From the NCBI GenBank assembly GCA_017506865.1, contig JAFCMP010000072.1, positions 124,001-188,000 of the forward strand: DNA of 64,000 nt, written 5' to 3'. Below the pieces are notes generated by a model that saw only the letters and a program-made list of their open reading frames with translations, had not been told where the DNA came from and did no database searches. The stretch comes from Tribonema minus. Taxonomy: Eukaryota; Sar; Xanthophyceae; Tribonematales; Tribonemataceae. Each line of letters starts with the position of its first letter. Within the stretch, counting starts at the first letter, position 1. The translations under genes and the position numbers were made by a program. Positions 11,811-57,300 of the stretch are shown in pieces.

Positions 11811-12850
11811 CTATCGAAATTCGAGCAGCGCTGTAAGGCGAATAGAAGCCGAGCTGCAGGCACGCGGCTGAGCGTGACAGCGCTGCGCAATTGCGATGAT
11901 GCCCCCCGCTGCCTCCTGCTCAAGCTCACCGTCCATGCTGAAGCTCACCGTCCATGCTCTGTACGCAAGCCGATCACCGCCTTGCAAGCAGCATCGCGCT
12001 CTCGCCGACTGCTGCGCTGGGCTCAGACGCGCACGCGCGTGCGCTGCCTCCGCGCGCGCCTGCTGAACCTCGCCGTCCTCGCAGCGCAGCGCTGCACGCA
12101 GGTCGTCCGCCTCCCTGTCATCAGCATTGAGCGCTGAACACGTGCTGTCGTGCTGTGCCTCCCCGTGATGCAGCTGAGCGCTGCTGATCTCGTGGGCCTT
12201 CACCAGCTGCCTTCACATCTCCTCCAGGTCATGCGACTCGGGCGCTGAGATCCTTGCGAACTGCAGCAACGTCCACCCTGTGCGACACCTGCGCATCCGC
12301 ACCCCGGGCCTGCACCGCGCCACCTGTTCAGAAGCTGCATCGCGGGCGCGGCGGCGCCGTGGGTGATGCTCAAGCGCGCTCTCGCACCCCCTGTATCATC
12401 GCGGCACCAGCAGTGGCAGCGCTCCACCACCGCGGTGCACACGTCAGGCGGTCGGCAAGGGCGCGAGCTACGGCGTCAGCCTGCGCGGCATTCGCGTGTT
12501 CGGCAAGGAGTGCTACGATCACTGCGCGGCGGGGCGCCTGCTCGATGCTAGAGGACACATGAATGCTGTCCAGCACTGCGGCCGGGCGGTCCTGCGCGCG
12601 CCTGCAGCAGCGCTGCGCGGCGCTTTTGGGGAGAACGGGCCTGCGCAATCGCACCCTCTCCGAGCACGTCTCCGCCGCAGCGACAGTGGATTGGTGGATA
12701 GCATGGATAGCATGTGACGCGCGCCACGCATGGGCGCACGCGACGTGTGTGGCCGTCACGCATTGTGTGGGCCTGGAGAGCGCCGCGTTCAACTGCCACA
12801 CTTCCGCATTGCCGCGCGCGCCAGCGGCGGCGCAGTGGCAGCCGCGAGCG
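11811..12850 (-). pseudogene. Decayed coiled-coil gene fragments
   Basis: This GC-rich island has fragments in several minus-strand frames and no continuous model. The best piece (12160-11880) reads DLRAALRCEDGEVQQARAEA and then MDGELEQEA. This resembles the coil of the intact gene at 9.0-10.6 kb (ALRALHGELQQARADLHAA; DADGELRRH), and the DNA words CGCGCGCCTGCTG and CTCGCCGT are shared. Frame changes and stops interrupt it. A tandem duplication of AAGCTCACCGTCCATGCT is at 11921-11958. Most likely it is a degraded relative of the neighbouring coiled-coil gene. The GC composition fits former exon sequence. Confidence 0.4.
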
Positions 12851-13097
12851 CAGCACTTAAGCGCGGCAGCAGCAGTGGCGGCGGCGGCGGAAGTAGCAGC
12901 AGCAGCAGCAGCAGCAGCAAGTGAGTGTGCTCAGCAACGGAGGAGAAGGTCGTGGGTGACAGAGCACTGGCGCCGGGGGCAGGGGAAACCGGGGGGGTGG
13001 GGGGGGGGGGGGTGGGCGGGCGCGTCGTCCGGTAGGTTGGCGCCTTCCAGTGCTGTGACAGAGAAAGGCGCCGCCACTGACGATGCAGTGAAGGGGG
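12851..13097. repeat. Simple-sequence tract (AGC)n and G-run
   Basis: An imperfect GCA/GGC trinucleotide tract (about 12865-12922) is followed by GGGG-rich sequence at 12988-13018. It has the look of repeat expansion at the edge of the fragment zone and no coding model. Confidence 0.5.
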
Positions 13098-13229
13098 ATG
13101 GCACAGCGGCAGCGCGCGGGGAGCACCAGTAGGACAGCGGCAGCGGACCAGCGGCTACACCTCCGCCGCCGGTGCAGCAGCGTTTGCAGGCAGTGCCACC
13201 GGTTCACTATGCCGCTGCGTGCGTTGTTG

Positions 13230-13703
13230 CCTTCAACGCCGCCGCCGCAGCAACAGCAGCAGCAGCAGCAGCACCTTGACAGTCCGCAGCGGCGTCGCAC
13301 CGCACATAGGATGGCGTGCCGCAGTCAGTTCCAGCGCACGACGGCGCAGCAGCAACACCAGATGTCTAGTCCGCAGAGCAGCTGCCGCACTCCGGTGTCA
13401 GCGACTACATCAAGCAGCGCGTCAGGGCGACCCCCACTGTGGGCACCCCCACCCATTGCCGCATCAGCAACAAGCAGCTGGCAGTGTTCGTGCAGCCGCC
13501 AATCCGAGCGACGTTCTACGCTGCACGCGCAGCTGCTGCCTGGGGCCATCCAGTGCACCAGCATGGCGCTGTACTTCTCTGAGGAGGTCAACGACTTGTG
13601 GGTACTTGGCTTCATGACGGATACGCAGGCGTACAGAGCCAATGCGCCGCCGTGCAATGAAGGCCGTGTCTACATCGCGTACATAGACAGTGTTGCCCAC
13701 TAG
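13230..13703 (+). pseudogene. CBP/p300-type acetyltransferase (KAT11) fragment, arm 1
   Basis: This is a fragment of the catalytic domain of a CBP/p300/HAC histone acetyltransferase. Near 13404 it reads SDYIKQRVRA, then SNKQLAVFVQPPIRATFYAA. After frame changes it continues ALYFSEEVNDLWVLGFM and then NEGRVYIAYIDSVAH, the hallmark acetyl-CoA-site segment of the family (compare QRRVYISYLDSV). A stop follows at once, and the rest of the domain is absent. The left part carries CAG runs and a start-like MACR. Shifts in frame and the missing domain halves show it is not functional. It forms a tail-to-tail inverted pair with the fragment at 13721-14260. No intact KAT11 gene lies in this window. Confidence 0.68.
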
Positions 13704-13720
13704 CCTACTAGCATCTCCTG

Positions 13721-14260
13721 CTATGTACACAGCTGCATCTCCTGGTGCGCGGCCACGCGCCTGCTGCATGGTTGTGAGTGGGCAACACTGTCGATGTACG
13801 CAATGTACACGCGGCCACGGTTGCACGGCGGCGCATCCGCTCGATACTCCTGCGTGTATTTGATGAACAACAGCACCCACAAGCCGTTGACCTCCTGGGA
13901 GAGGCACAGCGCCTGGCTGGTGCACTTGCTGCGCGCCGGCAGTGGGTCCCTTTCCGCAGCACAGAACGTCGCCGGGATGGGCGGCGGCACACGCATCGCC
14001 AGCTCCTTGTTGCTGACAAGCCTGACGGCAATGGGTGAAGTGCCCGCCGGCTGGGTGGCCTTGACGCGATCCTCGATGTAATCGCTTACATCGGAACGCG
14101 CCAGCTGCTCTGCGGAGTACAGGTATTGCTGCTGCGCCGTCGTGCGCTGGCGCCGCCCGTGGCACGCCATGCAGCGTGCGGTGCGAGGCCGTCGTCAGCT
14201 GCAGCGGTGCTGCTGCGCTGCGGCGGCAGCAGCGGCGGCGGCGGCGGCGGCGGTGCGCGG
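13721..14260 (-). pseudogene. CBP/p300-type acetyltransferase (KAT11) fragment, arm 2
   Basis: This is the inverted partner of the fragment at 13230-13703, and better preserved. One frame of 149 codons runs from 14170 down to 13721: MACHGRRQRTTAQQQ, SDVSDYIEDRVKA, VRLVSNKELAMRVPPPIPA, KYTQEYRADAPPCN, RGRVYIAYIDSVAH. It continues past the point where arm 1 stops, with SQPCSRRVAAHQEM, equivalent to the RPKCLRTAVYHEI segment of p300. Then it stops; the C-terminal half of the acetyltransferase domain is missing, so it cannot be a working enzyme. Outside the frame, homology to arm 1 continues into the CGCACCGCAC region. The arms look roughly 75-80% alike by eye. Confidence 0.7.
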
Positions 14261-15486
14261 AGCGGTACTGAGAAATGGCTGCGCGGCCTGCGATTGCATG
14301 TTACAATAGGCGTTCACTCGCCGCTGGCCGTGGTAATGGTGCGCATGGTGAGGCTCAACTGTCCTGCCTTCTGCGCATGACCGCAACACCGAGGAGGCGT
14401 CGCGCCGCACACTCCCCGCATGCACACGACATGCGATGCCGCGCATGCACCCGCGCTCAAAACATTGCATGCAGTTGATCAACCACGGCGTTGAATGCGC
14501 GGTGTGCGGCTGTGATTCGCTGCAGCCGATGACGGTGCATAAAGTAAGCTGATCACACAGAAATGCATTTGCGCATACTGCTGGAGCTCTCATTGTCTGT
14601 ATGAATGCAATGGCCTGAAACCTGAAACCTACTTGTTCTCCAATGTAGATGTGATCTGATGCATGCAGGTGCACTATCTGTTCTGGCTGATTTTGCAGTG
14701 AGTTAACCTTGCAGCACCTATCGCTGGTGTTGTGATTGTAAACAAATAATGCATGCACATGCGCATGTACTGCTTGGGGACTGGTGGCATGATCATGGGT
14801 GGCGTTGTTGTATGCAGACTGACACAATTCACATTCGATGGACAGATTGCATAGCGCTCTGGTGCACAAAGAGGTCCTACTGATGTATGGTCCAGGTGCA
14901 ACCAGCTGCAAGTGTTTTGATTGGCAACACTGCTGGCAAGCAATGCGCAATCAGCTGCCTCTGGTTGTTCCCCTGCATGTTTATTTTAAGTCCATCAATG
15001 TGTACACTACACTGCTATATAGGTGCCGTACCATGGCAAGTGGTGACGCTCATCATCACAATTGGCAGCAGCTGGCAAATGGCAGTGTGCCAGCCGACTT
15101 CAAGTTGTCCACAGCGCCGTCTGCATTGGGCATCAGCTATTTGACTCAAAATCACAAAGCCACGCGCCACGTGATTACAATAAAGGTCAACATCTGTCTT
15201 CCTGACTTTGATGAGAGCCGCACCATTTGCTTCTAGGGCTAAGATTGCAACACGCATAGTCTCTCCCATTGGCTACTGATGTGGTGGATGGGGATGGGCG
15301 TAGTCTCAGCATGTTTGCTCGCCAATACTTCAGTGTACCCGAAGCTAGGGCTGTTAGGTTTGAAGTAGATGCTCAGCGCTCGCCTTCACCCGACGCTGTC
15401 GCCTCCATTCCTGCTCTTGCACATCCGAGTCCACAGCAGCTGAAAGGCATGGCATGACCACTGCAAGTCATTACTATCCACCTTTA
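14261..15486. other. Intergenic, no gene recognised
   Basis: A long minus-strand open frame (14950-14195) crosses this stretch, but it is Cys/His-rich, ends in the poly-Ala shadow of the neighbouring arm, and shows no family resemblance. I regard it as chance. One ACTTCAAGT copy is at 15097-15105. Confidence 0.4.
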
Positions 15487-15928
15487 CAAAAGCGTCGGTG
15501 CAGTCCATTCACCAGCACATCCCAACTGCTGCCTGTTGTTGCTCTCATGACATAACTGTGACCCTGCAGCCAGGAAAACCCGGGATGCCATTGCCGCCCT
15601 AGAGCGCCAGCAACCGACAACGAGCTGCGCATCGCGCTGGCTGCTCAGGTGGAAGAGGGGCAGCAGCACATCGGCGCTGCTGAGCACAGTGCCGCCGCTG
15701 CGGAGCACAGCGCCGCCGCTGCGGCGGAACGTCGCGCCGGGTTCGCTGCCGTGGCCGCAATGCTGCTGCGAAAGACGTGGGACGCGGCGGATAGTCTGAG
15801 CGCGCTGCAGGCGGCACAGGCGAGTCACGCAAACCTCGAGGCGGCGCGCACAGCCCTCACATCTTCGCATCAGGCGCTGCTGACGATGGCGCAGGGGGCG
15901 CGCGCCGAGGTAATGGAGCTGCACACCG
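15487..15928 (+). pseudogene. Coiled-coil gene fragment, arm 1 of inverted pair
   Basis: This arm carries an exon piece with intron-like sequence on its left: a TGTGACCCTGCAG acceptor-like site at about 15560-15570, then ARKTRDAIAALERQ. After a frame change it continues ELRIALAAQVEEGQQHIGAA, AEHSAAAAEHSAAAA, ERRAGFAAVAAMLLRKTWDA, ADSLSALQAA and SSHQALLTMAQGARAEV. It is a heptad-rich coiled coil with an Ala/Glu/His triplet repeat. The parent gene is not in the window. The inverted partner lies at 16001-16605. Confidence 0.6.
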
Positions 15929-16000
15929 CTGCTGCTCACAGGCGCATTGCCAAGGACGCAGCCATCGCCAGCCTGCGGCGCGACGCCGGCCGCAGCAACA

Positions 16001-16605
16001 GTGTGCAGCTCGGGCACCTCGGCACGTGCCCCGCGCGCCATTGTCAGCAGTGCCTGATGCGATGTTGTCAGGGCTGCGTGCACTGCCATAAGCTTCGCGT
16101 GGCTCGCCTATGAGGCCTGCAGCGCGCTCAGACTATCCCCTGCATCCCATGACTTGCGCAGCAGCATTGCGGCCACGGCAGAGAACCCCCCCGCGCGACG
16201 CTCCTCCGCAGCGGCGGCGCTATGCTCCGCAGCGGCGGCGCTGTGCTCCGCAGCTGCGTGCTCCTCAGCAGCGGCGACGTGGTCGTGCCCCTCTTCCACC
16301 TGAGCGGCCGGCGCGGCGACGAGCTGCTGCACGTCTTTCAGCTGCGCAGCCAGTGTGGCAGTCTGCTCCTCGGCAGCGCTGACATGCTCCTCCGGCAGTG
16401 GCGTCTAGCTCGGCAGAGGCGATGTGCTGCCCTTCTTCCACCTGAGCGGCCAGCGCAACGCGCAGCTCAGTGGCGGCTGCCACATGGCGCTCCAGGTCGG
16501 TAATGGTTTCCCGGGCTTTCCTGGCTGCAGGGTCACAGGTCTCATGGGAGCGGCAACAGTCAGTAGCTTGAGGTGTGCTGATGACTGGACTGCACCAAAA
16601 CTTCC
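16001..16605 (-). pseudogene. Coiled-coil gene fragment, arm 2 of inverted pair
   Basis: Read from 16605 leftwards, it repeats arm 1: the same intron-like lead with GTGACCCTGCAG, then ARKARETITDLERHVAAA, ELRVALAAQVEEGQHIASA, a second internal copy of AAQVEEGHDHVAAAEEHA, AEHSAAAAEHSAAAA, RRAGGFSAVAAMLLRKSWDA, GDSLSALQAS, and TTSHQALLTMARGARAEV. It differs from arm 1 by an extra internal repeat unit, frame changes and stops. The two arms face each other across about 70 bases. Shared intron-side sequence shows the unit was copied as DNA, not from spliced RNA. Confidence 0.6.
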
Positions 16606-17600
16606 AGACACACACGCGCGCAAGCGCACGCGCGCGTGCACTCGTCCTCACTCTCTCCCTGTCTTCCCACTGCCCCCTTCTCGCTCTCTTTACACACACA
16701 CACACACACTCACACGCGCGCCTATAACCTCAAGAAAAACAAAGACACTGCTAGCTCCTGGACAGAGGACGGTCCGAGAAGGAAGGAGCGATATGGCCCC
16801 TTAGCCCCGAGAGAAGGAGAGAACACAAAACAGTGTACTCCAGCAGCTTGTTCTGCTTCAGATTGCCACCCGTCATCAGAGCACCCGGACACAAGACCTG
16901 CGTGCGAAGGCAGAAGGGAAGGGTGGTGTACTTCAAGGAGTACGCCTAGCCGACGCCTTTTAATCTAAAGAACTGTCACAGTACCTGCCGGATCGGGTCC
17001 AGAGACCAAAAGGGCGTCGTCGTCGTCGTCCCGCTTATGCCATCTCGGTTTCTCATGCAGGAGGTGTTCGCACTTGCCTGCTCGGTCCAGGCCGAAGAGC
17101 GCCCGCGCCTCGAGAGATGGGAGCACAGTGGTACCCAGAGCGCCCCCTGCACGTCTTGCTGGGCGTAAGCAGAGCGCCATGATCTAGGCAACGCCTGCTG
17201 CTCAAATCACTTTCAAAGCATCGTCGCAGGCGCCCAACCAGCAGGTGGAGGGGGCCAGAGGCATCCAGACTCAAAAGTGCGTGTCGAACGGTGCCCGCAC
17301 CAAGCAGTGGTTCCACTCAGAGGAGAGTCAAGAGAGATAGCCCTGAGCTCGTGGGTGTTTCTCTTTCTTTCTCGATCGCGACGAAGTTTGAAATTCCTGG
17401 GTACGTTGGTACTCTCCCTGAGATTAAATCACCCGACGCCTCACCTTTTTACCTACGCACGCGCGAGCGAATTGACAGCTGTTATCAGGTCGGTCTGCTC
17501 TAGAAACCTTATGACGCGAGCGGCGTCAAGCGCCGTGCTGTAGCCACGGCGCTGTCCAAGAGAGGTGCACAAGAACCCTACATTGGCCTGTGAGAACGAA
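16606..17600. other. Intergenic with (CA)n microsatellite
   Basis: A short CA/TG dinucleotide repeat lies at about 16690-16712, near CGCGCA-rich sequence at 16615-16640. No coding-like island and no recognised gene. Confidence 0.45.
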
Positions 17601-17699
17601 GTGCGAACTACATCACGCTGTCGGTCGGCACGCTGACCAGCTGCAGCAGCGCTGATGATGGATTTGCGCTATAGTGCTGCCTCCCTTGGCTGACGCAGC

Positions 17700-18790
17700 G
17701 CTGCTGCCGCCATCTTGGTGAGACCATGGCGCTGCTCCAAGAAAATTTGTGCCTGCCGAAAAAAAAACGCCCTCTTTCGCAAGAACAGGAGGTTGCGTCG
17801 TATTGCTGCACGCGCGACCGCATCCTTCTGGCAGTCCATTCAGCAAGCAGCGAAGCTCCCTGCTGCACCAGCACGCGTCTCATCTCAATGTGTGTCAGGC
17901 GCAGTCTGTGTGAGAGAGTGGCTGGTAGCGAGACTGAGGAATTCGAAGAGGCCCCCGGATCGGGGGGCCTGTTGGCCAACTTCGGGGGATCGCGCTGGTT
18001 TGGCCAACAGCGTCGCGTGATTGCACTGCAATTCACGCAGCACTTTGCATGTATGTGTGTGGACGACAGCAGGGGCTGCTTTTTGTTTTTTTGTACATTG
18101 CCTTTGGGGATTATCACCCAGAACTTCTAGTTACTTTAGCGACAACACATGGCTGGACAGTCAGGTTTTTGAAGTACAGCGCGCGGGGGGGGATGTAATC
18201 GGCAGGTGCTGTTCACCACGCATTTTCCGATGTCCATGATCATAGATGAATGAAATGGCTGCTTTACAATATTTAGCAAACAACACAACGGTGAACTGAT
18301 TTATTCCGAAGTAATTTCACCCATAGACGAATCAAGTTCCCTGCTGCACCATGTCCTCTGAAATATCTAAGTGCACACCTGGTCGTCAGGCGCAGTCTGT
18401 GAGGCCATGTCTGCGTGCGATGCCCCCCCCCCCCGCCCCGTCCCGGAGGGGGGGGCAGGGGGGGGCAAACCTACTAGTAGTCGGCAGGCCCCCGCACAGC
18501 ACATCTGACTTCACGGGGGCTAACCTTTTGCGAGGTCAAGCACGCATTAATTTGAAATCTGTGTGTGTGGATAAGAGCAGGTGCTGCTGTTGTACAGGCC
18601 GTCGCTGTGCGCGAAGCGAGACGCCCCCCCGGAGGGTGGGGGAAGGGGGGGGGGGGCATTCTAGGCGGGGTCTGGCACGGCAAACCTTATACTTGTCAGC
18701 TCATTGGTGGATAACATATCTTTAGTTTCAGTAAAGTGCATGCGGGCTAAGTTGACGCCCCCCCCCCCCGGGGGGGGGGTGCATCAGCGG
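17700..18790. repeat. Diverged tandem duplication with C-run/G-run palindromes
   Basis: Two diverged units about 485-500 bases apart share CCCTGCTGCACCA (17858 and 18339), GTCAGGCGCAGTCTGTG (17894 and 18385) and a GTGTGTGGA...GAGCAGG..TGCTG block (about 18056 and 18560). Each unit contains sequence able to fold as a C-run against a G-run: 17949-17970, 18422-18456, 18623-18657 and 18758-18779. The last is a perfect loopless C12G10 palindrome. No open frame of interest crosses these. The origin is unknown. Confidence 0.5.
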
Positions 18791-19039
18791 TGCAGACGCA
18801 GATCTCGAGTTAACTTACAATGAATCAATTACGTGAACGAATGAAGGTGCTGCTTCGTACATCACTCAAGCGTAAATCACATTAGGTGTGTGTGAAGATC
18901 AGAGAACTGTTCCATCTCGCACGTTCACGTCCGTTCACGTACCCAGGACTCGACCCACTCGCAGTGGGTCCTCTCCCGCAATGTTGAAGTTTGACCATCA
19001 GAGAAGCAAAAATCTGGACAGGCTCGGTCGACTTGTCAA

Positions 19040-19490
19040 AAGCGGAACAGGGGCTGACCGACCAGATTGTTCAGATGTCCCTTTTTCACAATCAGGGTCT
19101 TCATCAACGCATTCAACTGGGGCATTCCTCTCTCTGGCAGGCGGTGATTGGGGCCGTCAGCGAGACCTTCAGGCTGGCACGCAAGCGCAAGAGAACGCCC
19201 GGTCAACGGACGAGGAGTTCACCAAGGTGCGCAAGCGCCTCAACGACGAAATGCAGTTGGCGCAGGCGGAGAGCAAGCACACACTCCCGAGTTGAAGCCT
19301 CGTGCAGCAGCTCAGGGCAAACGCCCTGGAACCGCTAGACCTGGACACCGTCAAATCAATCAGGCAGAGGCGGAAGGGCCAGCGTGTGCCTGCTGTCGTC
19401 GAAGTGGACCGAGGGATGGCGGCGGCGGCGGCGGGTGCCGTCATCATATCCAGGCAAAAGCGCAAGCGCTTCCGCTGCACCGTGCTTGAA
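19040..19490 (+). pseudogene. Fragment of the 54-58 kb coiled-coil gene, arm 1
   Basis: This is homologous to exon 3 (55625-55949) and its upstream intron in the intact gene further right. It reads, across frame changes, QAVIGAVSETFRLARK, then ARSTDEEFTKVRKRLNDEMQ, then LEPLDLDTVKSIRQR. The parent reads QAVIEAVSEAFRLAFQAQ, VRSAEEEFAKVRKRL and LQPLDLDTIASTRLR. The intronic lead TCAGGGTCTTCATCAACGCA is also shared with the parent intron, so DNA including an intron was copied. Frame changes make it a pseudogene. It is the inverted partner of 19484-19915. Confidence 0.66.
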
Positions 19491-19915
19491 GTTGGGGCAC
19501 GATCACAGTGCTCAGCTGCCACACTGCCGCCGCCGCCAACGCCATCCCTTGGTTCACTTCATCCTCAGCAGGCGCGCGCGGGACCTTGTTCCTCAGCCTC
19601 GTTGACACAATGGTGTCCAGGTCTACAGAGGTTGCAGGTTGTTTGCCCAGAGCTGTCGCAAGAGGGCTTCAACTTGGCAGCAGTGCTTTTTTGGCCTCCG
19701 CCTGCGTTCCTGCTTGTCGTTATTCACGCGCTTGCGCACCTTTGCAAACTCCTCTTCGGTTGATCGTACGTTCAGGTGCGCCTGGCGTGCCTGCCTGAAG
19801 GCCTTGCTGACGGCCCCAATCACCGCCTGCGGGTAAGAGCAGTGCCCCTGTTGGATGCACTGATGAAGACCCTGACGGTTGAGACCCATCGCGTTGGAGA
19901 AAAGACAAACTTCTG
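19484..19915 (-). pseudogene. Fragment of the 54-58 kb coiled-coil gene, arm 2
   Basis: On the minus strand it reads AVIGAVSKAFRQARQAHLN, VRSTEEEFAKVRKRVNNDKQ, CQVEALLRQLWANNLQPL, then after a frame change DLDTIVSTRLRNKVPRA. It matches exon 3 of the intact gene and also its two flanking introns: the TTCTCCAACGCGATGG and AACCGTCAGGG words upstream and CTGTGATCGTGCCCCA downstream. It is closer to the in-window parent than arm 1 is. It overlaps arm 1 slightly at the centre, where both read the shared 3' flank in opposite directions. Confidence 0.68.
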
Positions 19916-22286
19916 ATCTATTCTTGCACAGGGGACTTGAAACATCAACATCTCAACTCAAGACCCGCATGCTCTAGGTGCCGCATACTGGACATCGAAC
20001 AGTGGGTAGAATTTGAGCATTGACGCAAGGTAGCATCAGTAATACTGATTCTCCACACGCAGATTCCAGTACACAGGCAATGTGGTCGATGCCAGGTAGC
20101 TTATGATGCTGGAAGTTGCTGCGGTTGCGTACACCACGAGAGGTATGTGTAAGTACCTGCATGGTGGTGACACGGTTAGATGTATGTATTTGCAGTTTTG
20201 TTTGTTGTTAGGCTTGTGATGTATTTACTTCTTCTGTTCGGTCATATCTCAGAACTCTTGGCATTTTGATTGATATCACAGTCAGAGATTCAACTAACAG
20301 ACTCATGAGGCTGACTGCTGGTCTGAATCTGGTGCATCTTGAACTCTCTTGCTCACAACCGAGCTTTGGGGGCCTGAGATCCTAGTGTGAGACAAGCAGA
20401 GGAGACTACTGAGGCCAACCCAAGAACCCCATCATGGAGTCCACAAGTAAGATGACAATGCTGCTCTCTGTAGAGTCACCATAGGCTTGCATCCCGTTGT
20501 AGTGGTGCTTTGATTCTGACCATCCGACGTGTCTGCAACAGGTGATGAAGGATCGTACTGTACTCTGTCGTCAACAAAAGCGGTACAAAGATGTGGCATC
20601 CAGGGTGGTCATGGCTGGGCGTCTATACAACCAAAGTCAGTAGCGCAGTTTCAACAGGATCTAAATGACTGAACAGCACAACGCCTTCAGAGCAAGCAAA
20701 GCACTGATTACCACTCGATGCCGACGTTTTTGGACTCTGCGGCATTCGAACTGGTATAAACAAAAGTAGATGTTAGCCTTTTGAGTCAACTGAGAGGTAT
20801 GTAGGTAGCTTGTGACAATCACACTTCAACTGGAGATGACGTTGTAGGGGAATACAAGATCTCTGCAGCACCAAACAATATGAGAGCTGGAGGTGCATGG
20901 ACAAGGCCAGTTAGACGCACAGTGACCGAGGCCACCCAACAGCATTAACTGTGGCTCCTCCGGCAGCATCATCAACACCTCCTGCCCCATCAGCAGCCCA
21001 GGCTGCAGATGATATCGTGAGCTTCATACATAACCTCACTTGAACAGCAGAGACAAGCAAGATCAGTGCATACCACAACCTTTTGGAACCACAGACCTAT
21101 ATGGTTGTTGGCGACAGCAGTAAATTGGCTCACACAGCGCTGAAGTGCGTTACATGCTGTGCAGCATAAATTTGATTCATGCCTGCAAATGCACAGCATT
21201 GCAACATACACCTTCAACCTGCAATTTTCCGTGTTTGACGCCTGCGGTGCACAAAGTCAGAATGCTTCAAAGCCAATTCTGGTAGTGTACATACTTGTGG
21301 ACTTGTATTTACATCATAAGATCGATAGCCTACTTCATCACATGAGAGACAGATCAAATGCACCAAAGTCTGCATGGTGCTGTCAGTACAATGCCTGCTA
21401 TGATGTGCGCAAGCTGGTCATACATTAGCACATAAGGAACCCCTTCTCCTCGCGTCAGCCACATTCTTCGTTGGCACTGCCAAACTGCCCATGCTGAATG
21501 CTCTAAACTGAGGAACAACAAGAGATGCATGCCAATGCCATTCACGTCCCGAGAACAAACATGCGACATATGCTGGCTGCTTATGCACTCGAATTTAATG
21601 GCGACGCAGCAAACGAAGTGCAAGTAAATGTCAAGAGGAGACGTCATAGCAAAGAACACGATGAGTGCAGGTAGTTGCAAAATGCTTCATTCATGGCAGT
21701 CCCTTGCACATGGTCCGGTATTAAGGGCTGAACACGAGAGGACAGGGGCTCCCTGCAACTGGTGGATGTGCAGCACCAGTACGTCCCAGTACTGCAAAGC
21801 GCTGTTTCTTGGCAGAGCCAATGGCAGCGACGCCATGCACCTGCAGGGCAGTGCGCGGCGTTGTTACAGACTTCTGCAATGCCCAGCAATCCCCACAATC
21901 CCCCTTCGAGTGTATGGCCTTTGTTGTTTGTGCTTGAAGGTGCTGAGCCTCTCTCTTCGTGGCGAATTGGCAAATGGGGGTGCACTGCGGATCGTGCTTG
22001 GACAACTGCATGTCGTGTTGGGGGGTACGGGTGCTGAGCAGCGCTGTGCAACCACTATTGCAGGCGCTTCTGACCCCATCAGTTTGTCAGAGGCAGCATC
22101 AGTGGCAGGGCCACATTGCTCAACATTGTGTGAGGCTCCGCTGTCTTGCCATCTGCGCATGACACCCGCGGCATTGAGGAGGCTCTCAGCAATGCGTTCC
22201 ACAGCGACCAGCGCCGCACTTCCCCACTTCACAGTCTGTTGCCATTTGCAAGTTGAAGAAGAGCATTGCGCTGTACCAGCATGTGC
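19916..22286. other. Long AT-balanced stretch without recognised gene
   Basis: About 2.4 kb with the lowest GC content of the window and no coding-like island. Several chance open frames occur on both strands near 21.6-22.3 kb. They lack the codon composition of confirmed exons and no domain was recognised. No repeat or transposon ends were seen. Confidence 0.4.
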
Positions 22287-38286: not shown

Positions 38287-39575
38287 ACGCTCGACGAAAC
38301 CGGCGGCGGCAGCGGCCGCGCTTGGCGTGGCGGCGGCGGCGGCGGTGCTCGTGCTGCAAGGTTGTTCGTGCCTCGATGCCGCGCGTAGCAGTGGTGGTGG
38401 CGTCGACGCGTGAGCCTTGCAGTGCGTGGGCGCTGGGTGCAGTGTTAGGGATCGGTGATGAGCCGTGCTGTTGTAGATTGGTGCAAGAGCACCGTTGGTG
38501 CGGCACGCGTGGCTAGTGCCTTCTCTCGGCTGTTAGGGCCAGCTGCAAATAATAGGAAATTGCCCTCCCAGCTGCACAGCGGCTTTGCAGCACGCGCCGC
38601 AACAGTTTGAGGTGAGAGGTGGTGCAGGAGTTTGCGTTAGGTTTACATGTAGACAGCTGCGCTGCGCCCTTTTCGATCCGCTACACCTACGGAGCTCTTC
38701 AGGCGCCCTGTTAGATTGGTTTTGACCTCCAGTATCATCGTACAATGACATGCCCCAAACCCAGCCTGCAGCATGGGTCGTGGTTGCAAGGTAGTGAGCT
38801 GAGGGAGTCAACTTGTAGCGATGAGCATCGGGGCTGTCTTGGTATGCTGAGAAGGCACACACGGCGCGCACAAGCAAAGAGAGGGGGGCTTTACACTTTT
38901 TTTCAATGTGCACACAAGTACGACATGAGGGTCATCAATCCTTTTCGAGGGCTGCCTTCAGCCTTGACAGTTTCCTGCGAGGTGCTAACCTGCTTCCTTG
39001 CGCATCACACTGGTGACAGCCAGCGGATGCTTCCGCTGATAATGACAACACCATTTTATGAATGGCATGAGCTAGACCGTTTGTGGAGCATAGCACGACG
39101 CGGTGACGCTTGTCCTCTGACGTGTTGACGCTTGTTTCTCCGCTTGTTGGCATGTTTTGTGGGCTCTATGTTGGCTGGCGGCATCTTTCACTGGTAGAAC
39201 AAGTACGCTGTCTGCATCAGTGCGCACAGAGAACATCGCGCACAAGCTCAATGGGAGCATGGAGTTGAGTATGATATGGTGCAGAACAGTGTGTCCGCCC
39301 TCAAGCGACAGTGAATCAAGAACTACATTGGGTCTCCCATGCGCGCATGCATCAGCCTCAGCGCGATATCGCCTTGTTGAAGTTGAAGTGGACCAGCCTC
39401 GTGGTCCGCCCTTCAGCGAAAGTGAACAAAGGACTATGCATTGGGTTTACCAAGCGGCGTAGGCAAATCACATTGGCACACGTAAATGAGGCGATGATGC
39501 CTCCAAGTCACTTCTGCCTCCTGTTGAAGTTGAAGTGGAACAGAACTTCGTTCCGCCAATTTGGCACTAATAACC
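38287..39575. other. Intergenic between kinase and deacetylase
   Basis: No gene was recognised. GTTGAAGTTGAAGTGGA occurs twice (about 39377 and 39521) with related flanks, including CAGCCTCGTGGTCCGCC and CAGAACTTCGTTCCGCC, so it is a weak diverged duplication about 145 bases apart. Confidence 0.4.
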
Positions 39576-42500
39576 ATGGCCTCGTGGTTGCTGCTGTGCC
39601 TCCTGGCGCTGTGTGCGCAGCTTGCAAAGGGCATGTCTATAGCATCCCCGCCTCGGACGCTGCCCACCACAATTGCAAGCTCTCCGCGATGGAGCACAAA
39701 GTACTGGTCAGAACATGGTGACAAATTCTACCAAGAACAGTTCGGGGAAGCCAAGGAGGATCAGCTGCCAGTGGTGTATCATGACTGCTATAACATCGGT
39801 AAGCGTCGCATAGATGATGGCTTGGCCAACTGTATAAATTGCTGTGATGATGTGTTGACGAGTCGTGCTTTCGTCAGACGAATCTTCTTCTCAGGTGTGC
39901 ATGACGATTACAGTGGTTGACAATATGGGTCAACAGAGTCGCCCCAACACAACCAGTGATTGTCGATTAATACTCTGGCCAATGTCACTGTCACAGACCT
40001 GGTGCAAAACATAGAGCTTTTGTCAAAACTCACCAACATGCGTTGTGATCAGTTACGACAGGCCTCTAGCAAGGGGGATGCTGGGAGTAGAGTACACGTT
40101 AAAGCAATTTACCCGAGAACAGATGCAATTTAATATGTAGCAACGTCACTCACAACTTCACCTACTACTGCAATTCTCATCCCAAGAATCCGAACAAGTT
40201 GCATGCCTCCCTTGCCCCCCCCCCCCGGTTCTCGCCTCGCTCACCTCTTCCTGCAGGGTTCTTCGGCCTTGAACGGCTACACCCCTTTGACTCGTTCAAG
40301 TTCAGGCGCATCAGAGACGGCTTGGTGGCGGCCGGCATAGTCAAGAAGGACGCCACTGTCACCCCTAAACCCGCAACCCGCCGCGCCCTGTCTCTAATCC
40401 ATACACCAGAGGTAAGAGCTTGATCAGGGACACAATAAACGCCTGGTGCACATCTCTCATGCTTATTATTTGCTGATGGTTGGTAGCAGCCGGTATTGGT
40501 ATCTGTTTGCTGATACTGGTCTCTGATGCATTAGCCAAATGGGCTGCGAACTGGCGGCCATGTGCACATGCGTGGACGGTTCACGGATGCCCCGCCGCTC
40601 GCGTGCGGCGACTTCGCATTGCCACGCGCCATTCCATCACCACATCGTGTAACCTGTGCATGCAAGTGCTGACAACTCTATACCCTACCATTCGAGACTG
40701 CCTCTTTTAACCATCCTGCACATCTCAACGCCGAACAATGCCACAACCCCCCCCCCCCCCCCTGCCCCCCCCCCAGTACCTGGGCTCCCTCGATAGCCCG
40801 GCGAACATGGCGCGCATCGCCGAGTTCCCGCCCCTCGCCTTCATGCCCGCGTGGATGGTGCGCTCCAAATTCACGGAGCCCAACCTGCACCACGTCGGCG
40901 GCACCATTCTGGCGGGCAAGCTGGCGCTGGACCGCGGCTGGGCGGTGTCGCTGGGGGGGGGGATGCACCACGCGCACGCCTCGGGGGGCGGGGGGTGGTG
41001 CGTCTTCGCGGACGTCGTGCTGAGCTACCAGCACCTGCGGCTCGCGTTCCCGGAGAGGGTGGCGCGCGTGCTCATCGTGGACCTCGACGTGCACCAGGTG
41101 AGCGACGCGTGCGCGGGGGTGGTTACTCCATGCTTTTGGGGGGGGGGGCGGGGGGGTACTTTCTCGCGCACGCCTTGCTGGGGGAGGGTGCCATAAGGCT
41201 TCTAAACCTGCCGCAGGGTGCGGAGCGTTGCTGCGTGAGGGATCAGCGGGGATGGTTGCATTGCGCATGACTGACATTGTGGGAGCGTGTCTCGGCCGTG
41301 TTTGATAAGCCCGCTGGACTTGCCGCTAATGTCTGAGTGGCGCTGCTCGCAAGCGCGATGTTGCGGAGCTGGGTCTGAGCAGAAGCAGTGGGTAGTCGGC
41401 TTCGTTGTAACATCATTTTTTTTCTTCTTCGAAACCACGTACACCAAGCTTGCTAGCTACGATACATCTGCGACATGCCGTGTGACTGACAGGTTAGCGT
41501 GGGCGTCGCCATCATTGATCTGCATCTGCAGCAGTGCTAGCGACTCCCTGTGGCAACAGTCACGCGTGAAACCATATGGGGCGCTCACAGCACCCCACCG
41601 AATAGAGCCGATAATCTGTATGATAATCTGCTCCCATGCATCTGATCTGTACAAGTACTATGTAGTAGAGCCTTGCATGCGCAGCACTGCCACCAGACAA
41701 CCACACCAACAGAAGCCGTTGATCAGACACCACCGCCTGCTCATTCTATGCCTTAGGACACTCATTGCAGTACATACATGTCATGGTGCCAAGAACATGA
41801 TAGCAGCCAATGCCTCAGGAAAATCTGTCTGGAAGATCGACTTTGTCTCCTTGGGAGCGCCATCGCTGCACTCAATGGGCTCTCATCCGCATCCATCGTG
41901 TTCTCCACAGGGCAATGGGCACGAGCGGGACAAGCTGACCATGGGTGACACTGGCGCAACCGTGTTTACGCTGGACGCATTCAGGTGAGCGCGGACGCGC
42001 ACAGAGCGGGGTCCAATTAAGTTGAGCGTTGCGATGGCCCTGACTCTAATCCTGATCCTAGCCCTAACTAAGTCTACCCCCAACCCTAATGACAGCGAGC
42101 ACGTCACACTTGAAGTTTTGCCACGGTTGGAGAGAGCGAGGTCGCAGCGAGCACTGTCACGCTTGAAGTTTCGCCGCGCTAGAGAGAGTGAGCACTTGCA
42201 GATAGGAGCGTGCGGATGTTTGTAGGCGAGGGACCCTTCAGGGCGCGAGCCTTCTTAGGTATTTCGGCGCGCGCGCGATTCTCCACACTACAGATGCATC
42301 TGGGCGTGCTCATTTTTGCGGTACCGGGTATGCGTACGTGCGTATCGCTGCAACCGTTCACCAATCAGCGCGCTGGGGTCGATTTGCCGCTCTCAGCGGG
42401 AACACTTGGAAGCCTCGAGCTTATTCTGGCGCTGGCTCTCCAGCGCGTGAGGTGTTGCTGCACAGGCGGCGCGGAGCGCGCGCAGCGTGTTGACGCTCGG

Positions 42501-45500
42501 CACGTCTCGTACTGCAGTCTCAAGCCTGCGGCCACGCTTCACGGCCTGCAGGGCGTTCTCATCAGGTCGCCACTTTTCGCTCCTCGGAAGTGAAGTTGTG
42601 CGTAACGGCTTTGAAGTTGCTGAAACAAAAAATGTGCATCGTGGGTGCTCGGATGTGCTTAAGTAGAATTAAAGCCGTCTTACAGGAAGGCAGAACTTAT
42701 GCTCGCAACCTGTAGTACGTGTTTTGATGCTCACAGATTCAACGCAAAACAGCATTTGATGCAGGTTAAAAAAAGCTTGAAAAACCACGCGCAAGCTGAG
42801 GTGGGAGCGATGGTCTCTTACCCGCTTTGAGCGCAGCTTACCCCTTGCTAGCCTCCTCTACACTATCGACATGGGTCCCTCGCCCCCTACCTCCGGAGGA
42901 TGAAGGGAGGGCCTTCCTTGTTTTCTAGTGGAGATGGGCGTGCGCGTTGCAAGCGGAAAGTGTCAAGAAGCTCCTAGAAGCGATGGAAAGGAGGGAACTG
43001 CCCAAGTTCACGCCGCTTCAAGCGGCAGTGTGGATTGAGCCTTCGCTCTTGCGGTCCAAGCGGGAGCAGCTGGACTATGCGGCGGCCGTGTGGCACCCAC
43101 AGTAGATTAGGCTTGCGCACAACATCTAATCGACGCGACAGGTGTCGGCATCACCCAGGCCACTGCCTTTGCCGAAGCAGCGCAAGCGACATCAGTAGAT
43201 TAGGCTTGCGCACAACATCTAATCGACGCGACAGGTGTGGGCATCACCCAGGCCACTGCCTTTACCGAAGCAGCGCAAGCGACATCAGCACATGGCGGCA
43301 GCTGGCGGCGCTGCCCAGCCTTGCCCAAGCGCGCCGCGGCGCAGTTCGGGGTCGCACGCCAGCAACGCTCGCACAGGTCGATCTACATACAGTGCGCTGT
43401 AACAGCAGGCATGCATCAACACAGAGGGCTTGCTGAGAGATGTAGATGCTACGGAGTTGTTTGCAAGCATGGCCAGGGTCGTTGGAGACGGCGAGGCACC
43501 GACGGAGATGATCACGCGCTATGCAATCGAATGCCACCTTCGTGAATATGGCCAGGCGGCATATGGCGCCCAGCAACAGCTGCGGCAAAGCGCCACCCTT
43601 CAGAAGATTGAAAACCTCCCTCGTGCTGTAGTCTACACTCAGATGCCTACGACTGTGTAGCACCCGCCCATCTGCGTGAATGCCTCTCCGTCTCTGATGA
43701 CTCTGGCCAGAAGTTCAAAGAATTGTGTAGCATCTACGTCCTGTAGCAAGCCCTCCGCATTGATGCATGCCTGCTTCCACAGTCTCTGCGACCGCCACCG
43801 TTGACAGCGTGCGTGATGCTTCTTTCTTGCTGCGCGCTAGCTCATGCAGTCCACGCCCGTGTACAGCAGCATGAGTTGATGCGCCGTGCATCGGCACCCT
43901 CTGAATGCATGTTGTCAGCTCAACACACTGCTCCCAACTCTTGCCCATAAAAAGTGGACAGCCTGCAGATGACCTCCTCATTGTTACAACAGGTCGTATT
44001 GCAAAAGTTATTGCCCATTTTTGGTCACACATATGTTGTATCTGTTCCCGCAGGCCAGTGCTGTTCCCCCAAGACACGTATGCCACGAGCGCCATCGACG
44101 TCAGGGTCAACCTCACAGGTATGTTCGTTGCGTCACTTCTGCAGCGCTCATGCAGCAGGGCGCAGTCTCAGCAGCCGCTCACAACTTTGGGTCGTGATCA
44201 GCACAGGGTTTGGAGAGTAGTTGACTGTCAAGTATACATGCACTAGCCATCGACAGTTTTGCGGAGCAGGGTGGCTGCGTGTGTCAACATCAACTTGATC
44301 TGCTGTTGAAGGGGCTTGTTGTGAGTCAACCGTCACATCAGGAGTTGTGTAGCACAACCCTGTGAAGCCCTCACTGAAGGCTAAGAAGGCTGGTACGAGG
44401 CTGGTACCGCAGGCATTTTCTTCAAACTGGTGTTGTTGAGGACATGTCGTGTTTGCAATACTATGGTGCCAACGTGGTGTCAAGGGCTGGCATGCCTAGG
44501 CTCATTGCAGCGCAAATGCGGACCCGTGGCTACATTTCAAGTGCCGTGCGGTATTGCCGACTACCGTTCAGGGTGAGCTTCATTGTGATGTTTGTAAAAA
44601 GAGTTGAGCTTCCACCAGAAGGTGCGTCTACTTTGTCGTAGCGCCCACAGCCTGCCTCCACAAGCAACATGATGCGGTACCTGCAGGATGCCGCTGTTCT
44701 TTGTCATGCTTGAAGATGTCTTCTTGGGCGAACGCCCATTGGTTGGTGCCAAGTGCAATGTACAGTGTCTGCTGCTGGTGTGTAGTCCATTCTGCCACTT
44801 GAAGCTGATGATGGAAAATTGCAATGGTTGGTCACTCACCCTGAGCAACTGCAATGAATAAGAATGGCAGCTTCAGTTCCCTTCTCAACTAGCCGGCTGC
44901 TTACCGCCCTCAGAGCTGCCTCAGCGGTCGTGATTATTCTGACTGGCAGATGCACACACTTGATGTCGGATAAAGTTCAAGTCATTCAGACACTTGAAGT
45001 ACATCAGATACCTCCGGAGCAAAGAGGTGCTATTGGTGCCAGTCGCGTAGCATTTGGGCTCAATGCAGGCTGGTTCCCCCCTTCGCCCTCAGGTTGTGAA
45101 ACGGACTCTGAGTACCTGAAGCGGATCGAGGCGGCTTTAGCAGAGGCGCTGGGTGGGGGGCAGCCGGGGGGTAAGGAGGGTGCACCGCCCTTTGACATCT
45201 GCTACTATATAGCTGGAACTGACATACTGGTTGGCGACCCCCTTGGGGGGATGAACATCAGCCCAGAGGTGAGATGAATTCCAGTGTGCAAGGGGTTTAT
45301 GCGTCATGCACTGTTCCACTTTGCCTGCTTCTGCTGCAGTCTCATTGCCAATTGGCTGATGAGGAAGGACACAATACTTGGGTGACAGGCATTGTCAATG
45401 CTCAGTTTGAGAGCCATGTGTTGTCGCAGTCCAAGCGGCTGACAACAGTGATGTCTGCGCAAAGCGAGAGGTAGTAGCGCCAGAACCCACTGCTGCAGTG

Positions 45501-54345: not shown

Positions 54346-57300
54346 ATGACAGGCGGCGGCCAAAAGGCCGCTGCCGTCGCAGGCGCAGGCACCGTCTGTA
54401 GCATTGGCATTCTGGGGGCAATCACCTGGCGCAACAACGGTGCGTCCATGACTTCACTGAATACAGTTGCTGAGCACTTCAAGTCGCCTATGATTAAGCA
54501 CACACAAAGCTTGACAGCAATGCGGGGGTGATGCAGGTATAGTGAATATAATTGAAAACCACCACAAGCTTTGGGACCATCATGCGTTCGTGCGGCATTC
54601 AGCATGGGCTGGCTACACGTCGATGGCATCTGAAGTCATCACCCTGACATTAGTGTGAAATCTCTCTTAACATACTCCAGCTCCAGCCCGAACATCCGCA
54701 AATAACGCCGAACACGCTTCTACTCTGCAAATAACGTCCAACTCTCTTCTAGTCTGGGCGTACGACGCGGAGGACGCACTGGCGCAGGCGCGTGTGGAGC
54801 TGGAGAGCTTGCGTGCAGCGGCCGCGGCGAGCGCTGCTGAGGCTGCTAGCGCGCAGTCGGCCCTTGCCGCCTCTCAGGAGGAGGCCGGCCAGCTGCGCGC
54901 ACGCGTCAGCAGCCTGGAGACAGACGCCGAGACGCACAAGTCGGCTGCTGCTGCTGCTGCTGCCGCTGCTGCTGCTGCTGCGGATGCGCGTTGGGGCGCC
55001 GCGGGACAGGGCGACCACTGCGCGAGCGTTGCGCAAGGCTGGGAGAAGCTGCGTGCAACTATCGACGCGGCACGAGAGGAGGTCGATGGGAGGGCTGCTG
55101 TGAAGGTCGGCGGGACGGTAGAGGTATGCATTGCAGAGTCATGTTGAAGTGGGCATGTCTGCATCTTGAAGTTGGGGGGGGGGGGGGGTGTGGCTTTGCA
55201 GATGTGACTTGCTCAAATGCTCATTGCATATGTAGTGCACAGATTGATGACATCGCTAAGCATACTTGAAAGTATTGGTGGTGGTAGTGGACACTGAGCA
55301 GTGGTAGTGCGCAAACACTGCAACTGTCAGCATCATATGTTGCATGCCTGGTACATATTGACCGCCTTGCCTGTGTGCTAGAGCCTGCGTGTTGAGAATC
55401 AGCATCAACTGAGGCTATTTTGCATCAGTGCTCATCCTACCCACTGTGTGTACCGCCAACACCTTGCAAGCATCACATCCAGCTGTCCAGCATTTGAGTC
55501 CAGAGTTGAGGTTGGGTTGTACGTTCTCCATTCCGCTTGCAAAATCATTCAGGTGTTTGTCATCTCTCCAACGCGATGGATCGCAACCGTCAGGGCCTTA
55601 ATCAATGCATGCTCTTACTCACAGGCGGTAATTGAGGCTGTGAGCGAGGCCTTCAGGCTGGCATTCCAGGCACAGGAAAACGTACGATCAGCCGAAGAGG
55701 AGTTTGCTAAGGTGCGCAAGCGCCTTACGATCGAGAAGCAGCAGGTGCAGGCGGAGGCGAACAAGCGCCGGTCCCAGGTTGAAGCCCTTGTGCAACAGCT
55801 CTGGGCAAACAACCTGCAGCCCTTAGACCTGGACACCATTGCGTCAACGAGGCTGAGATACAAGGTCCCGCGCGCGCCTACCGAAGACGAAGCCGACCAA
55901 GGGATGGTGGCAGCGGCGGCGGCGGCGGTGCAGCGCACGCCAGCGGAAGGTGAGAGCTGAGCGCTGTGACTGTGCCCCAGTTTCAAGAACGGTGGAGCGT
56001 CCACTGCCACAAGTGTCAGCTCTCAGCAGCAAGTGACCATGGCAGTCACGAAAAAGCACTTGGTTTGTAAACAAGCACAACAGTTCATGCTGGGCACTTG
56101 CCTGTCGAGAACTTGCTCAAACGAGAGCATGCAGCATGTAACAGACCCCTGCTCTGTGGCACTCCTGTTGGCACACAGACAATTGACCTTCGAGGGTGCA
56201 ACGCTGAATTCAAGTCCAACCGGGCACCAGACGTCCACGACCACCGCCTGACCCATCCCCCGCTTCTCACGCACGCTTCTCACGCAAGATGGTGTCAATC
56301 ATCACGCGAGTCGTCACTGCAGTTACTGAGCACTGTGTACAGTCAGCTATGCATGTCAAGCTATTACTACGGTTTACTGCATGTATCGATGTGATGTGTA
56401 CTGTCGACCTGTCTGGTGATGTGCATGTTAGCGATCCAGATGTCGCCAGTACCATGCGGCGCCGTGGTTTGTCGTACGCACTGCCTTGTCCAACGAGTGG
56501 TGTGACACTTCAAGTTAAACTTCACACAGGTGACTCTCGCTGCCATTGCGCAGTTCAGCGAGGTGTGACGGCGAGTGTTTGTGCTGCTTATGGTGCGTCA
56601 CCATTTCCGTGTCTGACCACATGCAATCATTCGCTTTGCCGCTGCAGGCGACATGCCAGAGCACAACCAGCGCTTTGGACTGCCGGTCAACCACATGCAG
56701 CCGCCGATAGCTGAGCAGGTGAGCGAGCACGGTCTTGAAGTTGTGCAGACATGCAGGCAGCACATCGTATGTTTACAAACACATGCAAAGTGGTCGCAGC
56801 GTGTGGTCATCATCTGCTCTCAAGTGTTGCCTGGGGGAGCTGTGCATGCCATAGCAGGACCCTGGTGGACAATTGCCAAAGTTGAAGTGCAAGTGCCAAC
56901 TTTTGAAAGTTGAACTAGAGCTGGTACTGCTTTGATTGATACAGTATGTCGGCCATGTCATGTGCGACCAGCACTGTGTTGCACAGTACACGCCATGCAG
57001 TCGTGCTAGTCCTGTGCAATATCATCAGAAAGAGGTCTGTAGTTGATTCCATGATCACAAGTAGCTCACTACCACCAGAGGTTTGTCGTAGACTCCACAA
57101 CACAAGTAGCGCACTACAGTACTTCAAGTACTTCGAAGTAGTAAACTTGTGCTGTCAGCATCAACGCCTCACGTTGCTGCTCGTTGCATTGCTCTTGCAT
57201 TGTGCAACGCGTGCTAAAGCAGGTCTCCGCTGCATTGCCGACACTGTTGTTTGCAGTTCAATGCTCTATTTCAACAGCCAATGCATACGCTGACAACACG

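What the first reader, a model, noticed from the sequence alone, without database searches (positions are those of the whole stretch)
13230..19915. A recurrent process making inverted exon-intron fragment pairs
Three unrelated gene fragments in under 7 kb show the same tail-to-tail layout with short spacers. Random duplication rarely gives this three times. Possible causes are fold-back template switching during replication, or a locus that collects hairpin-forming gene copies. Inverted gene duplication is an established route to new small-RNA genes in plants. A cluster that gathers such hairpins against several host genes would be a regulatory system worth describing.
Basis: inference. Interest (0 to 1): 0.75.

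Follow-up and report, generated by a model that had tools for sequence, protein, structure and literature searches.

The report
Recurrent tail-to-tail gene-fragment hairpins
Broken pieces of a histone acetyltransferase gene family, and of a few other sequences, sit back to back as long inverted repeats at several places in this genome, a layout that could make gene-silencing hairpin RNA, though no RNA evidence exists yet.

Summary
Three inverted pairs (arms about 72-81% alike, spacers 56-92 nt) lie at 13.2-20.1 kb; a weaker fourth lies at 43.4 kb. Pair 1 derives from a p300/CBP-type histone acetyltransferase (HAT) gene. Pairs 2 and 3 are two pieces of one repeated coiled-coil block, so not three unrelated genes. 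Pair 4 is an unnamed sequence. The layout recurs: of 31 HAT loci found in the genome, 8 hold a close inverted pair, all 8 tail-to-tail. I read three of those outside the window; they are true hairpins from other HAT paralogues. The pair-4 sequence is paired at 3 of 4 loci. Kinase and mitochondrial-carrier controls: 0 of 174 loci, a control biased to intact genes. Where the sense strand is clear (8 HAT loci, pair 3), 9 of 9 are tail-to-tail; for pairs 2 and 4 it is not settled. Argonaute genes exist; no canonical Dicer was recognised. The arms show no selection for pairing. A recurrent, family-restricted process is supported. Hairpin-RNA silencing is plausible, unproven, and about as likely as neutral decay.

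The parts
13237..13704 (+). Pair 1, sense arm: degenerate fragment of a p300/CBP-type HAT gene (frameshifts, stop)
   Evidence: inverted self-match; match to C90:119145-120427 +; three-frame translation
13723..14251 (-). Pair 1, antisense arm: the same HAT segment; holds a stop-free 157-codon frame 71% identical to the query
12289..13236 (+). Upstream continuation of the HAT remnant (homologous to C90:119.1 kb onward), matched on the sense side only
15490..15990 (+). Pair 2, left arm: fragment of the coiled-coil block (sense strand taken as +, not settled)
15992..16603 (-). Pair 2, right arm
16692..17373 (+). Unpaired degenerate fragment homologous to C90:107.8-108.7, 114.1-115.0 and 171.7-172.5 kb (mosaic context)
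19092..19434 (+). Pair 3, sense arm: second fragment of the coiled-coil block
19473..20137 (-). Pair 3, antisense arm, longer than the sense arm
21106..21588 (+). Unpaired fragment homologous to C90:124.65-125.17 kb, 3' side of the HAT segmental duplicate
43397..43534 (+). Pair 4, left arm: fragment of an unnamed sequence, perhaps a gene (strand not settled)
43645..43782 (-). Pair 4, right arm
55301..55999 (+). Unpaired paralogue of pair 3 within the larger repeated block (about 51-59 kb)

Best explanation
These are hairpin loci born by repeated inverted duplication of gene fragments from a few dispersed, diverging families: p300/CBP-type HAT genes above all, a coiled-coil block, and an unnamed sequence. 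SHOWN: the inverted anatomy; recurrence from different HAT paralogues and different parts of the gene; tail-to-tail orientation wherever the sense strand is clear; absence from two control families. INFERRED: transcription entering from the sense side runs through the centre and makes one long hairpin RNA; an RNase III cuts it; Argonaute-bound small RNAs then repress intact members of the parent family. The tail-to-tail bias fits this reading, because that layout keeps the parent gene's 5' side upstream of the centre.
For: Inverted pairs far above shuffles. A pair 3 transcript folds at z = -35 (20 shuffles). 8 of 31 HAT loci hold close inverted pairs, 8 of 8 tail-to-tail (p 0.008). Controls 0 of 174 loci within 3 kb; Fisher p 1.2e-7, and 7.7e-7 without the window locus. 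C55, C36 and C56 read directly: arms 76%, 86% and 73% identical, from the HAT or PHD part. Pair-4 sequence paired at C72, C67 and C553 in the same orientation each time. Arms of pairs 1 and 2 are sisters. Argonaute genes present.
Against: No RNA data. G.U-forming differences are balanced between strands, 100 against 95. No consistent excess of conserved 21-nt windows: p 0.12, 0.035 and 0.12 for pairs 1-3, none in pair 4. Arms have decayed to 71-86%. Three RNase III genes were found, each with one domain; no PAZ or helicase match in the seven frames scanned. Controls are biased to intact genes (123 of 905 kinase and 150 of 213 carrier candidates scored, against 73 of 73 for HAT); they do have 1 and 2 opposite-strand pairs within 20 kb. 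HAT was chosen because the window had a pair. Sense strand is unsettled for 4 of the 13 paired loci. In five of the seven other HAT loci at least one pair rests on match coordinates alone.
Confidence: 0.39

Rival explanations
1. Neutral by-products: a fold-back or inverted-duplication mutational process acts on duplicated, pseudogene-rich families, and the pairs simply decay. No hairpin RNA function.
For: Arms 71-86% alike, degenerate, no G.U strand bias, no clear small-RNA-sized conserved windows. The surroundings are a mosaic of decayed duplicated blocks. Large inverted duplicates also exist (C90 HAT pair; C50 Argonaute pair).
Against: Orientation is tail-to-tail at 9 of 9 loci of clear sense, where a neutral process should give about half, and the controls show none in 174 loci. 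The controls are biased to intact genes, so this is not decisive.
Confidence: 0.43
2. Shrunken convergent genes: large tail-to-tail segmental duplicates (tens of kb apart) later lost the spacer and their 3' parts, bringing the arms close.
For: A continuum of spacers exists: about 44 kb (C90), 37 kb (C479), about 10 kb (C50 Argonaute), 0.5-1.3 kb (C312, C53, C479, C544), under 0.2 kb (window, C55, C36, C56, C553). The arms of pair 3 need not be sisters.
Against: Spacers near zero with arms meeting at the same gene position (C55, C36) would need very precise deletion more than once. Pairs 1 and 2 have sister arms.
Confidence: 0.12
3. The pairs are parts of a fold-back or terminal-inverted-repeat transposon that has captured gene pieces.
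For: Inverted repeats and dispersed multi-gene blocks.
Against: Each pair has different arm sequence, and the arms match parts of open genes elsewhere. No transposase family appeared in the Pfam tables of the 22 frames scanned (10, 5, 7). I did not search systematically for transposases or target-site duplications.
Confidence: 0.04
4. Assembly or library artefact (fold-back chimeric reads).
For: Artefactual palindromes are known from long-read and amplified libraries (recalled).
Against: Artefact arms would be nearly identical; these are 71-86% alike and carry indels.
Confidence: 0.01

Closest known systems
hpRNA loci of Drosophila simulans (Nmy/Dox, hp-tHMG); PMC10317233, passages seen
   Same: Inverted repeats of gene fragments, some in clusters; recurrent targeting of one amplified chromatin-gene family (HMG-box there, p300-type HAT here)
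   Different: There siRNAs and Dcr-2 dependence are shown, and hp-tHMG arms are near-perfect; here the arms are 71-86% alike and no RNA is known
Inverted-duplication origin of plant MIRNA genes (Allen-type model, recalled; mentioned in passages of PMC5511227)
   Same: Inverted fragment of a parent gene, with homology to the parent along the arms
   Different: No mature miRNA or target cleavage shown; arms of up to about 600 nt
PAI1-PAI4 tail-to-tail inverted repeat of Arabidopsis (passages of PMC3431836 and PMC13213937)
   Same: Tail-to-tail inverted copies of a gene
   Different: PAI is one locus with demonstrated methylation in trans; here many loci hold degenerate fragments. The VIM4-VIM2 repeat of the same passages is head-to-head and also makes siRNA, so hairpin silencing does not require tail-to-tail
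Mu killer (MuK) inverted duplication of maize (passage of PMC3431836)
   Same: Inverted duplication of a partial element giving a hairpin
   Different: MuK forms a perfect 2.4-kb hairpin against a transposon, with siRNAs shown
Volvox and Chlamydomonas miRNA precursors (passages of PMC5093975, PMC4817775, PMC5511227)
   Same: Hairpins, some fairly long, as small-RNA sources; in Volvox some arise from terminal inverted repeats of the Jordan transposon

Membership tests
hpRNA / inverted-duplication small-RNA locus | Inverted repeat of gene-derived sequence able to fold into one long hairpin | tested here: met
hpRNA / inverted-duplication small-RNA locus | Homology of the arms to intact gene(s) elsewhere in the genome | tested here: met
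   pair 1: C90 HAT frames of 1018 and 1009 codons without stops; pairs 2 and 3: C20, C72 and C90 blocks. Not shown for pair 4
hpRNA / inverted-duplication small-RNA locus | One transcript spanning both arms | not testable with these tools
   no RNA data available
hpRNA / inverted-duplication small-RNA locus | Dicer-dependent 20-24-nt RNAs from the arms | not testable with these tools
   no small-RNA data available
hpRNA / inverted-duplication small-RNA locus | Argonaute in the genome | tested here: met
   Piwi domain, best E 4e-21, two genes on C50
hpRNA / inverted-duplication small-RNA locus | Dicer (two RNase III domains, helicase or PAZ) in the genome | tested here: inconclusive
   three RNase III genes, one domain each, in stretches of about 3.2 kb; one weak PDB hit to Giardia Dicer, E 0.005. 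PAZ and helicase were not searched genome-wide
hpRNA / inverted-duplication small-RNA locus | Selection for pairing (compensatory or G.U-biased changes) | tested here: not met
   100 against 95 strand-specific G.U differences over seven hairpins
Known RNA family (Rfam) | Match at the gathering score | tested here: not met
   0 matches in the window
Fold-back / TIR transposon | Common terminal repeats and target-site duplications across copies | not tested
   arms are gene sequences that differ between pairs
Simple fold-back duplication | The two arms are each other's closest relatives | tested here: inconclusive
   met for pairs 1 and 2 (100% bootstrap), not settled for pair 3 (79% against, AU p 0.25)

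The most novel reading that the evidence does not exclude
The genome carries a dispersed set of hairpin-RNA genes, born again and again by tail-to-tail inverted duplication, that hold in check an amplified family of p300/CBP-type acetyltransferases (and at least one other family). This would be a chromatin-gene conflict system parallel to the Drosophila Dox/Nmy hpRNAs but in an unrelated eukaryote, with orientation set by read-through from the parent gene's own 5' side.
Probability: 0.23. Interest if true: 0.85.

Novelty: new variant of a known kind. Interest (0 to 1): 0.58.

Why it matters
How new small-RNA genes arise is usually told from single examples. A genome in which one gene family has given tail-to-tail hairpins at 8 of its 31 detected loci, from different paralogues and different parts of the gene, would let the birth, orientation bias and decay of such loci be measured. 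If the hairpins are active, it would also point to an RNAi-controlled conflict over a histone acetyltransferase family.

Tried and rejected
A known-RNA explanation: no Rfam match. Artefact: excluded by arm divergence. Hairpin-structure selection: G.U strand test negative. Conserved 21-nt cores: mixed, not convincing. Positive selection on the HAT genes: not seen (dN/dS 0.53 between the C90 copies). Different-paralogue origin of pair 3: favoured, but sister arms not rejected. Coding constraint between the arms: third-position excess in pair 2 (24, 21, 40, p 0.025), not in pairs 1 and 3, so pair 2's arms may have diverged partly as coding sequence. Sense strand from codon usage: clear for the HAT control and pair 3, ambiguous for pairs 2 and 4. 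The Fisher value printed used 177 control clusters by mistake; one search gives the right one (174). Literature: ten searches (one search found nothing), from which I saw find-passages of six papers and otherwise listings with starts of abstracts. None of what I saw described a genome-wide hairpin set of HAT genes, but most subscription papers are not in that library. The organism could not be named with these tools.
Full report
WHAT IS THERE. The window is G000:C72:124001-188000 of an unnamed 158-Mb assembly of 554 contigs; exon-by-exon matches and Argonaute genes mark it as eukaryotic. Self-comparison confirms three long inverted pairs at 13237-14243, 15497-16596 and 19092-19875, and adds a fourth, shorter one at 43404-43775. 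Aligned arms are 75.0%, 81.2% and 71.5% identical for pairs 1-3; pair 4 is about 71% over the 115 columns kept. Their inverted-repeat scores exceed 60 dinucleotide shuffles each (640, 604, 494 and 85 against maxima of 56, 46, 38 and 52). As RNA, pair 3 folds 35 standard deviations below the mean of 20 shuffles. Pair 1 folds as one long stem (no shuffles at that length).

WHERE THE ARMS COME FROM. Pair 1 matches C90:119145-120479 and its inverted duplicate at C90:166.3-167.8 kb. These lie in open frames of 1018 and 1009 codons with a HAT_KAT11 domain (E 1.3e-7 and 2e-6), a PHD finger below the curated cut-off, and, for the first, E 1e-30 to p300 structures. Pair 2 matches C20:68.1-68.7, C72:261.7-262.5 (-), C90:95.5-96.4 (-) and a short part of C8. 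Pair 3 matches C20:70.8-71.5 and window 55.3-56.0 kb. Pairs 2 and 3 therefore come from one multi-gene block found in at least four copies of about 8-14 kb, 71-85% alike by pieces. The stretch 12.3-21.6 kb is a mosaic of decayed pieces of such blocks. Pair 4 has relatives at C160, C67 and C553 and no Pfam match; whether it is a gene is not settled.

RECURRENCE. A 260-aa HAT query gave 57 matches in the genome with all 73 candidates scored. Grouped within 3 kb they make 31 loci. Eight hold matches on opposite strands: C312, C36, C479, C53, C544, C55 (two tandem units), C56 and the window. In all eight the layout is tail-to-tail; the only head-to-head adjacency is between the two C55 units. At C544 the two nearest matches share only 25 residues of the query. 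I could read three loci outside the window: C55:275 kb is one inverted repeat of 776 nt with 76% arms; C36 has 86% arms and C56 73% arms over the PHD region. They resemble the query to different degrees (33-64% by match) and cover different parts of the gene, so several separate events are needed. The pair-4 sequence adds C67 (spacer 456 nt; seen only in the DNA search) and C553 (spacer 165 nt), both in the same orientation as in the window. Controls: protein kinase, 131 matches in 116 loci, and mitochondrial carrier, 146 matches in 58 loci, have none within 3 kb (0 of 174), and 1 and 2 opposite-strand pairs within 20 kb. Fisher p is 1.2e-7, or 7.7e-7 without the window locus. Caveats: only the best 123 of 905 kinase and 150 of 213 carrier candidates were scored, which favours intact genes, and HAT was chosen because the window had a pair.

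ORIENTATION. Where the sense strand is clear (8 HAT loci; pair 3, whose + frame scores best as coding in two paralogues), 9 of 9 are tail-to-tail; for the 8 HAT loci alone the two-sided p is 0.008. For pair 2 both strands score alike, and for pair 4 both strands are open; with my preferred frames they would make 13 of 13. Distant HAT matches in the opposite order exist on C223 and C544, so the bias concerns close pairs.

HOW THE PAIRS AROSE. Arms of pairs 1 and 2 form a clade apart from the other known copies with 100% bootstrap, as local inverted duplication predicts; for pair 1 the only other copies compared are the two C90 genes. For pair 3 the right arm groups with the window 55-kb copy (79%) and the left arm sides with C20 (16 sites against 8), but sister arms are not rejected (AU p 0.25). 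Pair 3 includes sequence upstream of the exon, which points to DNA-level copying. Large tail-to-tail inverted duplicates also exist: HAT on C90, Argonaute on C50, HAT on C479.

FUNCTION. For hairpin RNA: anatomy, orientation, restriction to a few families with open members, and Argonaute genes. Against: no G.U bias (100 against 95); mixed evidence for conserved 21-nt windows; arms old and degenerate; three RNase III genes with a single domain each and no recognisable Dicer in the stretches read. A head-to-head repeat can also make siRNA (VIM4-VIM2), so the orientation argument is suggestive only. The C90 HAT genes are under weak purifying selection (dN/dS 0.53; flanks 72-84% identical). I put active hairpin silencing at about 0.39 and neutral decay at about 0.43.

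LITERATURE. Passages (not whole papers) of PMC10317233 describe D. simulans hpRNAs that recurrently target HMG-box loci and a cluster with 13 local inverted repeats, the closest functional parallel. PMC3431836 and PMC13213937 (passages) give the Arabidopsis PAI1-PAI4 tail-to-tail repeat, the head-to-head VIM4-VIM2 repeat and MuK. PMC4817775, PMC5093975 and PMC5511227 (passages) cover algal hairpins. PMC3447711 (T. brucei siRNA loci) was seen in a search listing only.

LIMITS.

Noticed in passing
C50:26483-30917 (+) and 39558-44977 (-) (L048, L049): Two Argonaute (Piwi) genes form a tail-to-tail inverted duplicate about 10 kb apart, 76-94% alike by pieces.
   Followed up: partly
C90:116589-125264 and 161525-170121 (-): An 8.9-kb inverted segmental duplicate (82%) carries two p300-like HAT frames of 1018 and 1009 codons without stops.
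   Followed up: partly
window about 51-59 kb; C20:61-75 kb; C72:255-269 kb; C90:90-104 kb: A dispersed multi-gene block, 71-85% identical by pieces, in at least four copies.
   Followed up: partly
whole genome: p300/CBP-type HAT sequences are amplified: 57 matches in 31 loci.
   Followed up: partly
C90:119810-120038 / 121834-122084 and C90:164659-164899 / 166811-166999: Inverted matches 1.8-2.0 kb apart at both C90 HAT copies, starting in the Ala/Gly-rich linker; probably low complexity, not counted as hairpins.
   Followed up: no
window 43100-43285: 93-bp tandem duplicate, 98% identical, just upstream of pair 4.
   Followed up: no
window 40738-41196: Histone deacetylase exon (PF00850, E 5e-15).
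   Followed up: no
C72:269603-270676 (-) (L042:8603-9676): DNA repair REX1-B homologue (PF14966, E 7e-18). An earlier count gave a wrong position for it; this one is right.
   Followed up: no
L028, L029, L030 (C379, C46, C516): Three RNase III paralogues with one RNase III domain each, split over two frames; no double-domain Dicer seen.
   Followed up: partly
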